Shown: positions 1 to 60,255 of the stretch, one piece after another | Numbering within the stretch: position 1 is the stretch's first letter | Layout: the number at the start of each line of letters is the position of its first letter | Assembly: GCF_030127125.1 (NCBI RefSeq) | Contig: NZ_CP126156.1 | Coordinates: 2,356,001-2,420,000, forward strand | Direction: 5' to 3' | Length of the DNA stretch: 64,000 bases | Origin: Halobaculum litoreum | GTDB taxonomy: Archaea > Halobacteriota > Halobacteria > Halobacteriales > Haloferacaceae | Notes under the pieces: generated by a model | The model's input: the letters and a program-made list of their open reading frames with translations, nothing else | What the model was told of the DNA's origin: nothing | Database searches by the model: none | Made by a program: the position numbers and the translations under genes

Positions 1-495
1 GTCGTCGTCGCGCTCGCCGTCGTCGACCTCGTCGCCGGCGACGTGTTCCGCGCGACCATCGTGCTCGTCGTCGGCTTGGTCCTGATCGGGTTCGTCCCGG
101 ACGCGGTGATCCGCCCGCGCCTCGCCGGCGGCGCGACCGACCTCCCCGTCTCCGTCTACTTCATCGGCTTCGTCGGCGGCCTGCTCACCCTCGGCGCCAT
201 CGGCTTCGTCGTCGGCCCGCTGGTCGTCGCGCTGCTGGCCGAGACGGTCAGCCTCCTCTCGGCCAACGGCGTCACCACCCAACAGCAGTTACCCGGGTCG
301 TCGACGCCCGCGGCCGACGCGGGCTCCCGGCCGGGCGCCGGGGGCGGTCGCGACGCGCGCCCCGGCCGCGACCCGGACCCCCTCGGCGACGGGGGCGAGG
401 ACCGCGCCGGCGCGGGGACGGCGTCGGACACCGAGTCGGAGCCGGACACGACCTCGGAGCCGGACGCCGACGCGGACGACGACGCTACTCGCTGA
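1..495 (+). CDS. AI-2E family transporter, C-terminal part (5' end outside window)
   Basis: The frame is open from the first base, so the N-terminus lies upstream. The visible 164 residues start in a hydrophobic segment and contain the family's closing pattern: a membrane stretch around VYFIGFVGGLLTLGAIGF followed by VVGPLVVALLAE, typical of the last transmembrane helices of AI-2E/PerM-type permeases. The last 70 residues are an acidic, Pro/Gly/Asp-rich hydrophilic tail that is probably cytoplasmic. Substrates of archaeal members are unknown; the AI-2 name is inherited from bacterial homologues. The stop codon overlaps the convergent rhodanese gene by 11 nt. Confidence 0.75.
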   Translation, partial: VVVALAVVDLVAGDVFRATIVLVVGLVLIGFVPDAVIRPRLAGGATDLPVSVYFIGFVGGLLTLGAIGFVVGPLVVALLAETVSLLSANGVTTQQQLPGSSTPAADAGSRPGAGGGRDARPGRDPDPLGDGGEDRAGAGTASDTESEPDTTSEPDADADDDATR

Positions 496-1267
496 CGGTC
501 TCGCCGCCGCGCCGCTCCCACTCGGTGAGGCTCCCCTCGTAGAACAGCACGTCCCCGTAGCCGAGGTGCCGGAGCACGAGGTACGTGTGGCTGATCCGGC
601 GGGCGGTGTTGCAGTAGAGGAGCACCTCACGGTCCGGCGTGATCCCGTGGTCCGCGAGGATCGCCGTCAGCTCCTCGCGGGGCTTCAGCCCGCGCGTGTC
701 GGCGTCGACCAGCTCGAGCCAGTCGAGGTTGACCGCGCCGGGGAGGTGGCCCGCGGCGTACTCGTCGGGGTCGCGCGTGTCGACGATCACGGTGTCGCCG
801 TCGAGTCGCGCCTCGACGCCGGCGAAGTCGACGAGCGGCGAGCGCCGCGGCTCGCGCGGCTCGTACGCCGTCGGCGCCGGGTCGGGCGCCTCCCGCTCGG
901 TGGGGTGTTCGCGGCTCCACGCGCTGTAGTCGCCGTCGAGGACGCGGAGCCTCGCGGGGTCGTGGCCGTACAGCTCCGCGGTCACGAGGAAGCGCGCCGC
1001 GAACACGCCGTGTTCGTCGTCGTAGGCGACGAGGTCGTCGTCGGCGTCGACGCCGGCGGCCGACAGCAGCTCGCTCCAGCGCTCGGCGCCGGGGAGCATC
1101 CCCTCGTCGCCCGCGCTCGACCGGAACTCGTCGAACGGGACCGACACCGCGCCCGGCAGGTGCCCGATGCCGTCGTACTCCCACCCGTCGCGGACGTCGA
1201 CCACGCGGACGTCGGGGTCGTCGAGGCGCTCGGCCAGCCACGCCGCGGAGACGAACGTGTCGCTCAT
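485..1267 (-). CDS. Tandem-domain rhodanese (thiosulfate/3-mercaptopyruvate sulfurtransferase), 260 aa
   Basis: Sulfurtransferase that moves sulfane sulfur from thiosulfate or mercaptopyruvate to a thiophilic acceptor via a cysteine persulfide in the cytoplasm. Two rhodanese domains are visible: an N-terminal one with the VVDVRDGWEYDGIGHLPGA pattern and an Asp where the catalytic Cys would be (VAYDDEHG), and a C-terminal one with the active-site loop CNTARR (Cys219). The start was placed at MSDTF because the upstream extension is arginine-rich non-coding sequence. It is transcribed divergently from a second rhodanese at 1521, a common haloarchaeal pairing. The donor cannot be decided from sequence. 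Confidence 0.9.
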   Translation of the reverse strand: MSDTFVSAAWLAERLDDPDVRVVDVRDGWEYDGIGHLPGAVSVPFDEFRSSAGDEGMLPGAERWSELLSAAGVDADDDLVAYDDEHGVFAARFLVTAELYGHDPARLRVLDGDYSAWSREHPTEREAPDPAPTAYEPREPRRSPLVDFAGVEARLDGDTVIVDTRDPDEYAAGHLPGAVNLDWLELVDADTRGLKPREELTAILADHGITPDREVLLYCNTARRISHTYLVLRHLGYGDVLFYEGSLTEWERRGGETVSE

Positions 1268-39153: not shown

Positions 39154-39708
39154 TCAGAAGTCGGTGACGCGCGACTGGATCCGGCCGTCGTCGACCGCGC
39201 GGTCGTCGTCTCGCAGGTACTCGGCGACCTCGTCGGGCGAGATCTCCGTGCGCGCGTCCGCGAACGCCAACTCCGTCAACGACAGCGGCTCCCCCTCGCG
39301 CATCTTCCGGCGGACCTCGGCGACGCTCAACGCGTGGAACGTCACGTCGAGGTCGACGGTCGCCGCGCGCTCCTCGCCCGCCTCCGCGAGGTTGATCCCC
39401 TCGGACAGCACCGTCTCGAAGTCGATCTCGGTGTCGCCGACCCCGCGGTACAGGAACGCCACCGCCGACACGAGCGCGTCGAACGCCGCGGTCCCCTCGC
39501 GGTCGAGGCGGTCCGCGAACACCAACTCCCGGTCCGTCTCGGCGAGCCCCTCCACCAACACCTCGAAGTCGTACAGCGCGGCGTGCAGTCTGTCGCGGAT
39601 GCGCGCCCGCGCGTTGCGCTCGGACTGCACGCTCGCGAACTCGGTCTCCCCGCGCAGGTACCGCCGGTCGGCGGGGGTCAAGATCCCCCGTTCGCGGTCG
39701 TCGTTCAT
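39154..39708 (-). CDS. Uncharacterised haloarchaeal protein divergent from the second PCNA, 184 aa
   Basis: No domain named with certainty. The N-terminal ~50 residues (RGILTPADRRYLRGETEF, then ERNARARIRDRLHAALYDFE) form a highly charged segment with the RGILTPADRxYLRGE pattern that, from memory, recurs in many haloarchaeal proteins of unknown function. The rest is helical and acidic, with TEISPDEVAEYLRD near the end. There is no Cys, signal or membrane helix. It could be a small DNA-binding regulator, because its start codon overlaps one of two near-palindromic sites that flank its TATA box. Start at 39708; an upstream in-frame ATG at 39750 would cross the palindromes. Confidence 0.6.
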   Translation of the reverse strand: MNDDRERGILTPADRRYLRGETEFASVQSERNARARIRDRLHAALYDFEVLVEGLAETDRELVFADRLDREGTAAFDALVSAVAFLYRGVGDTEIDFETVLSEGINLAEAGEERAATVDLDVTFHALSVAEVRRKMREGEPLSLTELAFADARTEISPDEVAEYLRDDDRAVDDGRIQSRVTDF

Positions 39709-39726
39709 ACTCCGATTCGGGGTATG
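39706..39726. promoter_or_regulatory. Near-palindromic site 1, overlapping the start codon of the 39154-39708 gene
   Basis: Half-sites CATACTCCGA and TCGGGGTATG around a central T; 9 of 10 base pairs match. The first three bases are the complement of that gene's ATG. The same 5' half-site recurs 42 bp further on (site 2). Confidence 0.65.
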
Positions 39727-39736
39727 AACTCGGAAC

Positions 39737-39743
39737 ACATATA
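39737..39743 (-). promoter_or_regulatory. TATA-like box of the 39154-39708 gene
   Basis: Minus strand TATATGT-type sequence between the two palindromes, about 32 nt upstream of the ATG at 39708. The predicted start site falls inside palindrome 1. Confidence 0.45.
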
Positions 39744-39747
39744 GACT

Positions 39748-39768
39748 CATACTCCGATTCGAGGTATC
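39748..39768. promoter_or_regulatory. Near-palindromic site 2, upstream of both divergent genes
   Basis: CATACTCCGA, central T, TCGAGGTATC: the same left half-site as site 1, with a less perfect right half. Its centre is 42 bp from that of site 1, four helical turns, so both sites face the same side of the DNA. Confidence 0.65.
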
Positions 39769-39783
39769 TACTAGAACGGGCAC

Positions 39784-39794
39784 AAAAATACTTA
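39784..39794 (+). promoter_or_regulatory. TATA-like box of the second PCNA gene
   Basis: AAAAATACTTA, about 31 nt upstream of the ATG at 39820. It starts 15 bp beyond palindrome 2, so a protein bound there could also affect this promoter. Confidence 0.5.
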
Positions 39795-39819
39795 CTTGCC
39801 GACAGGTCCGCGATCGGGT

Positions 39820-40647
39820 ATGGTCGACGACACCTCCGCGAGCGGTGCCGCACAGCCCGAGGGTACTACGGAGTCGCTTCACGACACCGCGGACGCGCCG
39901 GTCCGGGTGCGCGTGCGCCCGGACGCGCTCCGCCCGTTGCTGTCGGCCGTCGGCGCGCTCGTCGACGAGTGTCGGCTGGCGTTCGCCGCCGACGGCCTGC
40001 GCGCGGCGGCGATGGACCCGGCGACGGTCGCGGCCGTCGAGGTCGAGTTGGACGCCGACGCGACGGAGTCGTACACCGCCGACGGCACCGTCGTCGGCGT
40101 CGACGTGGACCGGCTCGAGGAGGTGCTCGCGATGGCCGACGGCGACGAGGTGGCGACGCTCGCCCTCGACCCCGAGGCGTACCGGCTCCACGTCCACGTC
40201 GGGGAGGTGGAGTACGCGCTCGGGCTGTTCGACCCCGAGAGCGTCCGCGGCCCGGGCGACGTCGACGCGCTCGGCTTCGAGCACACCGCGGCGCTGACGC
40301 TCCCCGGCGAGACGGTCGGGCGGTTCGTCCGCGCCGCGGGGATGGTCGCCGACCACCTCACGCTCGCGGTCGACCCGAGCGAGGAGGCGTTCGTCGCCGC
40401 GGCCGACGGCGACACCGACGACGTGCGCTTCGTCGTCCCGCGCGAGGACACGACCGCGTTCGAGGCCGGCGAGGCGCGGTCGCTGTTCTCGCTGTCGTAT
40501 CTGGAGTGCGTCGAGCGCCCGGTCCCCTCGGGGACGGACGTGCGCGTCACGCTCGGCGAGGAGGCGCCGTTGGGTGTCGCCTACGACGTCGCGGACGGCG
40601 GGGGCCACGTCGAGGCGTTCGTGGCGCCGCGGCTCCAGGCGGTGTGA
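39820..40647 (+). CDS. Divergent PCNA paralogue (second sliding clamp), 275 aa
   Basis: Clear homologue of the canonical clamp at 59512-60255 over its whole length. Shared blocks include LVDEC near the start, DGxxxGVxxxRLEEVLAMA, the DTDDV turn, LFSLSYLECV against [10 protein letters not shown], and APRLQAV against APRIQSD at the end. Differences: a 26-residue acidic N-terminal extension (MVDDTSASGAAQPEGTTESL and on); no lysine at all, where the canonical clamp has seven (inner-ring positions now Arg or neutral); and a changed interdomain connecting loop (ESVRGPGDVDALGFEH in place of [15 protein letters not shown]), where partner proteins dock. It may form a homotrimer, mix with PCNA1 or act as a modulator. 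Haloarchaea usually have a single PCNA. Confidence 0.85.
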   Translation: MVDDTSASGAAQPEGTTESLHDTADAPVRVRVRPDALRPLLSAVGALVDECRLAFAADGLRAAAMDPATVAAVEVELDADATESYTADGTVVGVDVDRLEEVLAMADGDEVATLALDPEAYRLHVHVGEVEYALGLFDPESVRGPGDVDALGFEHTAALTLPGETVGRFVRAAGMVADHLTLAVDPSEEAFVAAADGDTDDVRFVVPREDTTAFEAGEARSLFSLSYLECVERPVPSGTDVRVTLGEEAPLGVAYDVADGGGHVEAFVAPRLQAV

Positions 40648-59511: not shown

Positions 59512-60255
59512 ATGTTCAAGGCCATCGTGAGCGCCTCCACCCTCCGGGACGCGCTCGATTCGGTGAGCGTGTTGGTCGACGAGTGTAAGATCCGGCTCAA
59601 CGAGGACGAGCTGGCGATCCGCGCCGTCGACCCGGCCAACGTCGGCATGGTCGACCTCACGCTCGAGGCCGCGGCGTTCGAGTCCTACGAGGCCGACGGA
59701 GGGGTCATCGGCGTCAACCTCAATCGCCTGGAGGACATCGCCGGCATGGCGAACTCCGGCGACCTCGTCCAGCTCGAACTCGACGAGGAGACCCGCAAGC
59801 TCCACATCCAGATCGACGGCCTCAGCTACACGCTCGCGCTCATCGACCCCGACTCCATCCGCCAGGAGCCGGACATCCCGGACCTCGACTTACCCGCCGA
59901 GATCGTCGTCGAGGGCGCCCAGATCGACCGCGGGATCAAGGCCGCCGACATGGTATCCGACCACATCCGCCTGCGCGTCGACGGCGCCGAGGAGGCGTTC
60001 TTCATCGAGGCCGAGGGCGACACCGACGACGTCGACCTCCGCCTCGACCGCGAGGACCTCATCGACCTGCAGTCGGGCCCGGCGGACTCGCTGTTCAGCC
60101 TCGACTACCTCAAGGACATGAACAAGGCCATCCCGAGCGACGCGGAGGTCCGCGTCGAACTCGGCGAGGAGTTCCCCGTCAAGCTCCACTACGAGTTCGC
60201 CGAGGGGATGGGGCAGGTGACGTACATGCTCGCGCCGCGCATCCAGAGCGACTGA
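59512..60255 (+). CDS. pcn: PCNA sliding clamp (canonical), 247 aa
   Basis: Homotrimeric replication clamp that tethers DNA polymerase, ligase, Fen1 and others. Family landmarks: start [20 protein letters not shown], the [20 protein letters not shown] block, interdomain connecting loop [18 protein letters not shown] and the C-terminal [19 protein letters not shown]. Seven lysines are present. It has a clear TATA box. The HAD gene follows at 39 bp with its own CTTTTG box. Confidence 0.98.

What the first reader, a model, noticed from the sequence alone, without database searches (positions are those of the whole stretch)
39154..40647. A second, lysine-free PCNA with its own divergent partner gene
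The gene at 39820 aligns with canonical PCNA (59512-60255) end to end, but has a 26-residue acidic N-terminal extension, no lysine at all (the canonical protein has seven), and a rewritten interdomain loop where client proteins bind. Haloarchaea normally carry one PCNA. It is not a broken copy: the frame is intact and the core blocks (LVDEC, DTDDV, LFSLSYL, APRLQ) are kept. Its neighbour, an unnamed 184-aa protein, is transcribed divergently from a promoter flanked by near-palindromes. This may be a regulated alternative or decoy clamp.
Basis: partly seen in the sequence, partly recalled or inferred. Interest (0 to 1): 0.75.

Follow-up and report, generated by a model that had tools for sequence, protein, structure and literature searches.

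The report
Second DNA clamp with tethered regulator
This salt-loving archaeon has a second DNA sliding clamp that is always encoded back to back with an unnamed protein that looks like its self-controlling regulator and ends in a clamp-docking tag; the pair recurs in at least 24 haloarchaeal genera and suggests a so far undescribed way of tying a clamp to the control of its own gene.

Summary
Window 39820-40647 (+) is an intact, lysine-free PCNA paralogue, 43% identical to the canonical PCNA at 59512-60255. Its divergent 184-aa neighbour (39154-39708, -) has no Pfam, NCBIfam, PHROGs or PADLOC name. All 48 neighbour orthologues fetched (24 genera, 10 families) have a divergent PCNA2 next door; 44 of 394 sampled Halobacteriales genomes carry the intact pair. 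Three conserved features tie the genes together. (1) Two palindromes (TAAYC-N7-GRTTA type) lie 41-43 bp apart in 47 of 47 measurable promoters, one overlapping the neighbour's start codon; many paralogues of the neighbour without a PCNA carry the same palindrome over their own start, so the family is probably DNA-binding and self-regulating. (2) The neighbour ends in an invariant tail with Qxx[VM]Tx[FY] (48/48), resembling the PIP boxes of this genome's FEN1 (QTGLDDWT) and PolD (QGSIADFM). (3) The two gene trees co-vary beyond species history. PCNA2 keeps its trimer salt bridge, is mostly under purifying selection, and has a rewritten PIP pocket. A regulated alternative clamp is supported; a decoy is not shown. 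DNA binding, clamp binding and the trigger are inferred, not tested.

The parts
39820..40647 (+). PCNA2: second, lysine-free sliding clamp, 275 aa
   Evidence: ORF and translation; PCNA_N over cut-off; AF2 model pLDDT 87, best PDB match H. volcanii PCNA 3IFV, TM 0.85-0.97, 41% identity; orthologue clade
40222..40290 (+). Interdomain connector loop of PCNA2 (residues 135-157), rewritten relative to canonical PCNA (Glu119 to Pro in 41/47 orthologues)
   Evidence: alignment to the canonical protein
39154..39708 (-). Neighbour gene: 184-aa unnamed family, predicted self-regulating DNA-binding protein with a clamp-docking tail
   Evidence: no library match above cut-off
39157..39195 (-). Invariant C-terminal tail VDDGRIQSRVTDF, PIP-box-like (Qxx-h-xx-F)
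   Evidence: Q, T, V/M and F/Y each 48 of 48 after a variable linker
39707..39725 (.). Palindrome 1, overlapping the neighbour's start codon
39749..39767 (.). Palindrome 2, between the TATA-like boxes of the two genes, 42 bp from palindrome 1
39738..39744 (-). TATA-like box (CTATATG) of the neighbour, between the two palindromes
   Evidence: read directly from the sequence; position inferred
39784..39794 (+). TATA-like box (AAAAATACTTA) of PCNA2
   Evidence: read from the sequence; conserved in the aligned intergenic regions; position inferred
59512..60255 (+). Canonical PCNA, for comparison

Best explanation
The two genes form a self-contained module: an alternative sliding clamp (PCNA2) and its dedicated, self-regulating, clamp-docking DNA-binding protein. 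The regulator binds two palindromes 42-43 bp apart (about four helical turns, same face of the DNA), which cover its own promoter and flank that of PCNA2; it thus represses itself and controls PCNA2. Its C-terminal PIP-like tail docks into a clamp, most likely PCNA2, whose PIP pocket has been rewritten, so that promoter occupancy is coupled to the amount or DNA-loaded state of the clamp. Shown here: gene pairing, conserved palindrome pair and spacing, invariant tail, co-varying trees, mostly purifying selection, intact clamp fold and trimer salt bridge, palindromes essentially private to the module. Inferred: that the neighbour binds the palindromes, that the tail binds a clamp and which one, the direction of regulation, and the trigger.
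For: Pairing in all 48 orthologue loci, always divergent; perfect co-occurrence in the genus, 5 with both and 6 with neither. Palindrome pair in 47/47 measurable loci with spacing 41-43 bp, found almost only at this promoter within genomes. Paralogues of the neighbour carry the same palindrome over their own start codon (28 of 50 with at least 5 of 8 pairs), which points to the neighbour family itself as the binder. Invariant Qxx[VM]Tx[FY] C-terminus, like FEN1 QTGLDDWT and DP2 QGSIADFM of the same genome. Trees co-vary, partial r 0.70 after controlling for PCNA1, 0 of 2000 permutations. R72-D172 trimer ion pair invariant in 47/47, pocket residues M46, M239 and E119 changed. dN/dS mostly 0.16-0.36.
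Against: No DNA-binding domain is recognised with confidence: a winged-helix hit is below cut-off (E 0.009), and the AlphaFold model of the neighbour failed (pLDDT 45). The tail lacks the second aromatic of the textbook PIP box and has Val where Leu/Ile/Met is usual. Neither DNA binding nor clamp binding was tested. The paralogue palindromes are not phylogenetically independent and the choice among start codons inflates their count somewhat.
Confidence: 0.6

Rival explanations
1. The neighbour is a clamp-binding inhibitor or accessory factor (TIP-like, or a DNA-processing factor), not the regulator. Both genes are controlled by another protein that binds the palindromes.
For: PIP-like tail; no recognised DNA-binding domain; small clamp-binding inhibitors exist in archaea that carry two PCNAs (TIP, PMC4929162).
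Against: The same palindrome type sits over the start codons of neighbour-family paralogues that have no PCNA next door, and within genomes it is found almost only at such genes; an unrelated regulator would not be expected to follow this protein family.
Confidence: 0.2
2. PCNA2 is a decoy or poison subunit: it forms mixed trimers with PCNA1 or titrates clients, and the neighbour merely keeps it off.
For: Trimer-interface ion pair kept, so mixing with PCNA1 is possible; altered pocket.
Against: The pore position of Lys205 stays basic (Arg in 39/47) and the client-facing P-R of the APR/SPR motif is invariant, as expected of a working ring rather than a poison; no positive evidence for a decoy.
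Confidence: 0.1
3. The pair is a selfish or virus-derived cassette: a viral clamp plus its regulator carried along by mobile elements.
For: Patchy distribution in many chromosomal contexts, one copy on a 359-kb replicon; haloviruses carry PCNAs.
Against: No neighbour in 50,697 phage records or in IMG/VR; viral PCNAs fall outside the PCNA2 clade.
Confidence: 0.08
4. PCNA2 is a decaying duplicate.
For: It evolves faster than PCNA1; one pair gives dN/dS 0.73, one genome has broken copies of both genes (G334).
Against: Mostly dN/dS 0.16-0.36, 47 intact orthologues, conserved interface, promoter and partner; the split from PCNA1 is older than the genera.
Confidence: 0.02

Closest known systems
Haloferax volcanii PCNA (3HI8/3IFV), the canonical haloarchaeal clamp
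   Same: Fold (TM 0.85-0.97), trimer ion pair R72-D172, pore Lys205 position kept basic as Arg, APR/SPR C-terminal motif
   Different: 43% identity, separate clade, changed PIP pocket and connector loop, 0-5 lysines against 5-10, faster evolution, dedicated partner gene
Thermococcus kodakarensis PCNA2 (TK0582) and TIP
   Same: A second, dispensable euryarchaeal PCNA, and a small clamp-binding protein (PMC3984812, PMC4929162)
   Different: There the second clamp is thought to be recently acquired by lateral transfer (PMC7776575) and TIP carries a putative N-terminal PIP motif; here an old lineage with a divergent, operator-flanked partner bearing a C-terminal tail. Homology of TIP and the neighbour was not tested
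Extra haloarchaeal PCNAs of Lynch et al. 2012 (PMC3404096)
   Same: Four duplicated PCNAs in haloarchaea were noted, origin called unclear for three
   Different: No partner gene, promoter element or tail was described in the passages read; whether those copies belong to this module was not tested
Phage T4 gp45 clamp with gp33/gp55
   Same: Transcription-associated proteins with clamp-binding motifs near their C-termini (PMC7892883); a works-like analogy only
   Different: gp33 and gp55 contact RNA polymerase and serve late-gene activation; here the partner appears to be a local operator-binding protein; no homology claimed

Membership tests
PCNA sliding clamp | PCNA_N and PCNA_C domains | tested here: met
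   PCNA_N 29.5 bits over cut-off 20.3; PCNA_C 20.0 bits, just under its cut-off 23; NCBIfam PRK01115 subfamily 199 bits against cut-off 207
PCNA sliding clamp | Two-domain clamp fold | tested here: met
   AF2 pLDDT 86.9, best match 3IFV, TM 0.85 (query) and 0.97 (target)
PCNA sliding clamp | Subunit interface for a ring | tested here: met
   R72-D172 ion pair invariant in 47/47; a multimer could not be modelled
PCNA sliding clamp | Basic residues lining the pore | tested here: inconclusive
   K205 to Arg in 39/47, K143 to Arg in 22/47 but Asp in 11/47; the haloarchaeal pore is weakly basic anyway (PMC2737543)
PCNA sliding clamp | Encircles DNA and raises polymerase processivity | not testable with these tools
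   needs biochemistry
PIP-box protein (the neighbour) | QxxhxxaA motif at a terminus | tested here: inconclusive
   Qxx[VM]Tx[FY] in 48/48, aromatic last residue in 46/48, second aromatic missing; FEN1 and DP2 of the same genome also have only one aromatic
PIP-box protein (the neighbour) | Physical binding to PCNA | not testable with these tools
   not modelled, not assayed
Archaeal autoregulatory DNA-binding protein (the neighbour) | Recognisable DNA-binding domain | tested here: inconclusive
   wHTH model PF24410 at E 0.009, 16.7 bits against cut-off 23; AF2 model unreliable
Archaeal autoregulatory DNA-binding protein (the neighbour) | Conserved operator at its own promoter, shared across the protein family | tested here: met
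   47/47 module promoters and 28 of 50 paralogues at the same position
Known anti-phage defence system | PADLOC model hit | tested here: not met
   no hit for either protein

The most novel reading that the evidence does not exclude
A cellular clamp-sensing gene switch: a PIP-tailed repressor that reads the level or DNA-loaded state of a dedicated second PCNA (or of PCNA1) and thereby turns on an alternative clamp when replication is disturbed, a cellular counterpart in spirit to the clamp-coupled transcription of phage T4.
Probability: 0.3. Interest if true: 0.9.

Novelty: new variant of a known kind. Interest (0 to 1): 0.73.

Why it matters
Most euryarchaea are described as using one homotrimeric PCNA. 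Here an old, widespread second clamp lineage travels with a dedicated protein that probably both controls its promoter and docks on a clamp. If true, it makes testable how cells deploy an alternative clamp and whether clamp state can feed directly into transcription outside phage T4. It also gives a predicted function to a widespread unnamed haloarchaeal protein family whose members look like start-codon autoregulators.

Tried and rejected
Decaying duplicate: rejected on intact frames, dN/dS, interface and promoter conservation. A broad regulon sharing the palindrome (for instance a damage response): not seen, sites are essentially private to the module and to paralogues. Virus origin of the pair: no neighbour in phages or IMG/VR. 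A third conserved partner gene: none. Neighbour fold by AlphaFold: failed because only two sequences could be used (pLDDT 45), so no fold search was run on it. Extra neighbour-family sequences from viral contigs to deepen that alignment: none found. Family libraries for the neighbour: nothing above cut-off. PDB profile search for the neighbour: nothing. Acidic extension and zero lysine as defining features: not conserved across the family.

Full report
What is there. PCNA2 (39820-40647, +) is 275 aa, lysine-free, and 43% identical to the canonical PCNA (59512-60255) of the same window. The genome has exactly these two PCNA-like frames. The neighbour (39154-39708, -) is 184 aa and divergent. 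The closest named genome with the pair is Halobaculum saliterrae (L003). In Halomicrococcus gelatinilyticus the public annotation calls the pair 'DNA polymerase sliding clamp' and 'hypothetical protein'.

Pairing. Within the genus, PCNA2 and a neighbour orthologue of at least 84% identity occur together in 5 genomes and are absent together in 6. Across the family (171 genomes), nine further neighbour orthologues of 57-67% identity appear, then a gap down to paralogues of 44% or less. All nine have a divergent PCNA-like gene next door; none of the paralogue loci fetched in that search does. In 394 Halobacteriales genomes a profile search gives 44 intact neighbour orthologues that match to the last residue, again separated by a gap from paralogues whose match ends earlier. 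All have a divergent PCNA2 next door. G334 has broken copies of both genes, and L079 has a frame break in PCNA2 in an 81%-complete genome. By hand count of the table, 111 of 394 genomes have two or more PCNA-like frames, and these include all 45 module genomes (G334 counted). The module spans 24 genera and 10 families, and no third gene is conserved with it.

Promoter. The first 14 intergenic regions align and show two palindromes. Over 47 loci (the start call of L086 is uncertain) palindrome centres peak at -8 and -51 from the neighbour's ATG, with spacing 43 bp in 31 loci, 42 in 14 and 41 in 2; the outer TA..TA is invariant or nearly so, and the consensus is TAAYC-N7-GRTTA. In the window one palindrome overlaps the neighbour's start codon and the other lies between the two TATA-like boxes. 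In its own genome the motif is found only here, apart from one 3-mismatch site. In 16 other genomes (14 of them with the module) exact sites are few; those with the AT-rich centre of the consensus are mostly at the module or at paralogue starts. Fifty paralogues without a PCNA link were examined: 28 have at least 5 of 8 pairs at the same -8 position, many reading TAATC-N7-GATTATG, e.g. L140 with 8 of 8. The simplest reading is that this protein family binds such palindromes and regulates itself. These counts are not phylogenetically independent, and choosing among several start codons inflates them somewhat.

The tail. After a variable, mostly acidic linker the neighbour ends in DDGR[IV]Q[SA]x[VM]Tx[FY]: Q 48/48, T 48/48, V or M 48/48, F or Y 48/48, and the aromatic is the last residue in 46/48. 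In the same genome FEN1 ends QTGLDDWT and PolD DP2 ends QGSIADFM, so PIP boxes with one aromatic are normal here, as was also noted for H. volcanii polymerases (PMC2737543). The paralogues whose tails were printed lack it.

The clamp. The AlphaFold model is confident except for the N-terminal 21 residues and matches H. volcanii PCNA. The trimer ion pair R72-D172 is invariant in 47/47. Pore Lys205 becomes Arg in 39/47. PIP-pocket residues change: Met46 to Ala or Ser in 28/47, Met239 to Leu, Val or Phe in 39/47, connector-loop Glu119 to Pro in 41/47. Lysines number 0-5 (zero in 26/47) against 5-10 in PCNA1. dN/dS is mostly 0.16-0.36, with one pair at 0.73, against 0.02-0.13 for PCNA1 and 0.10-0.26 for the neighbour. 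In the quick tree 42 of 45 PCNA2s form one starred clade, and all 45 lie on one side of a branch once two long rows are removed (support 81, not starred). Neighbour and PCNA2 distances co-vary (Mantel r 0.69, 0 of 2000 permutations), also after controlling for PCNA1 (partial r 0.70, 0 of 2000; 22 genomes). Co-transfer as well as co-adaptation would give this.

Mechanism. Best reading: a regulated alternative clamp with a self-repressing, clamp-docking regulator. Palindrome 1 overlaps the neighbour's start, where binding should block transcription; palindrome 2 lies upstream of both TATA-like boxes and could repress or activate PCNA2. The PIP-like tail would couple this to clamp level or loading. 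Which clamp it binds and what triggers release are open. In G391 the canonical PCNA gene lies directly downstream of the neighbour (L091), so PCNA1 is also a possible partner.

Known background. Extra haloarchaeal PCNAs were noted by Lynch et al. 2012 (PMC3404096); a 2020 review says that among euryarchaea only T. kodakarensis carries two (PMC7776575). I found no paper describing the partner, the palindromes or the tail in the open-access library searched; subscription literature was not searchable.

Noticed in passing
L042, L045, L137-L176 and others (paralogues of the neighbour): A wide, unnamed haloarchaeal protein family (relatives at E 1e-15 or better in 216 of 394 genomes), many members with a TAATC-N7-GATTA palindrome over their own start codon; looks like a large family of autoregulators.
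   Followed up: partly
L111, about 254-523 (-), running across the record start (Haloferax volcanii plasmid pHV2, NC_001375): An approximately 200-aa member of the neighbour's family (MSLDERARGILSPADRRYL...) that is absent from the gene table used here.
   Followed up: partly
L018, L020, L021 (genome G002): Three copies, identical in translation, of another very divergent PCNA-like frame in one Halobaculum-related genome, not linked to the module.
   Followed up: no
L019 (genome G004): A third PCNA in a genome that also carries the module; it groups with a viral contig PCNA (L108), probably a provirus clamp.
   Followed up: no
L091, 1085-3383 (genome G391): The canonical PCNA gene lies directly downstream of the neighbour, so PCNA2, neighbour and PCNA1 are contiguous.
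   Followed up: no
L100 (genome G334): Both module genes are broken together in one genome, suggesting joint loss.
   Followed up: no
G000:C1:2171731-2176764: The PolD large-subunit gene of this genome matches its family in two pieces of one open frame with an insert of about 1.5 kb, which looks like an intein.
   Followed up: no
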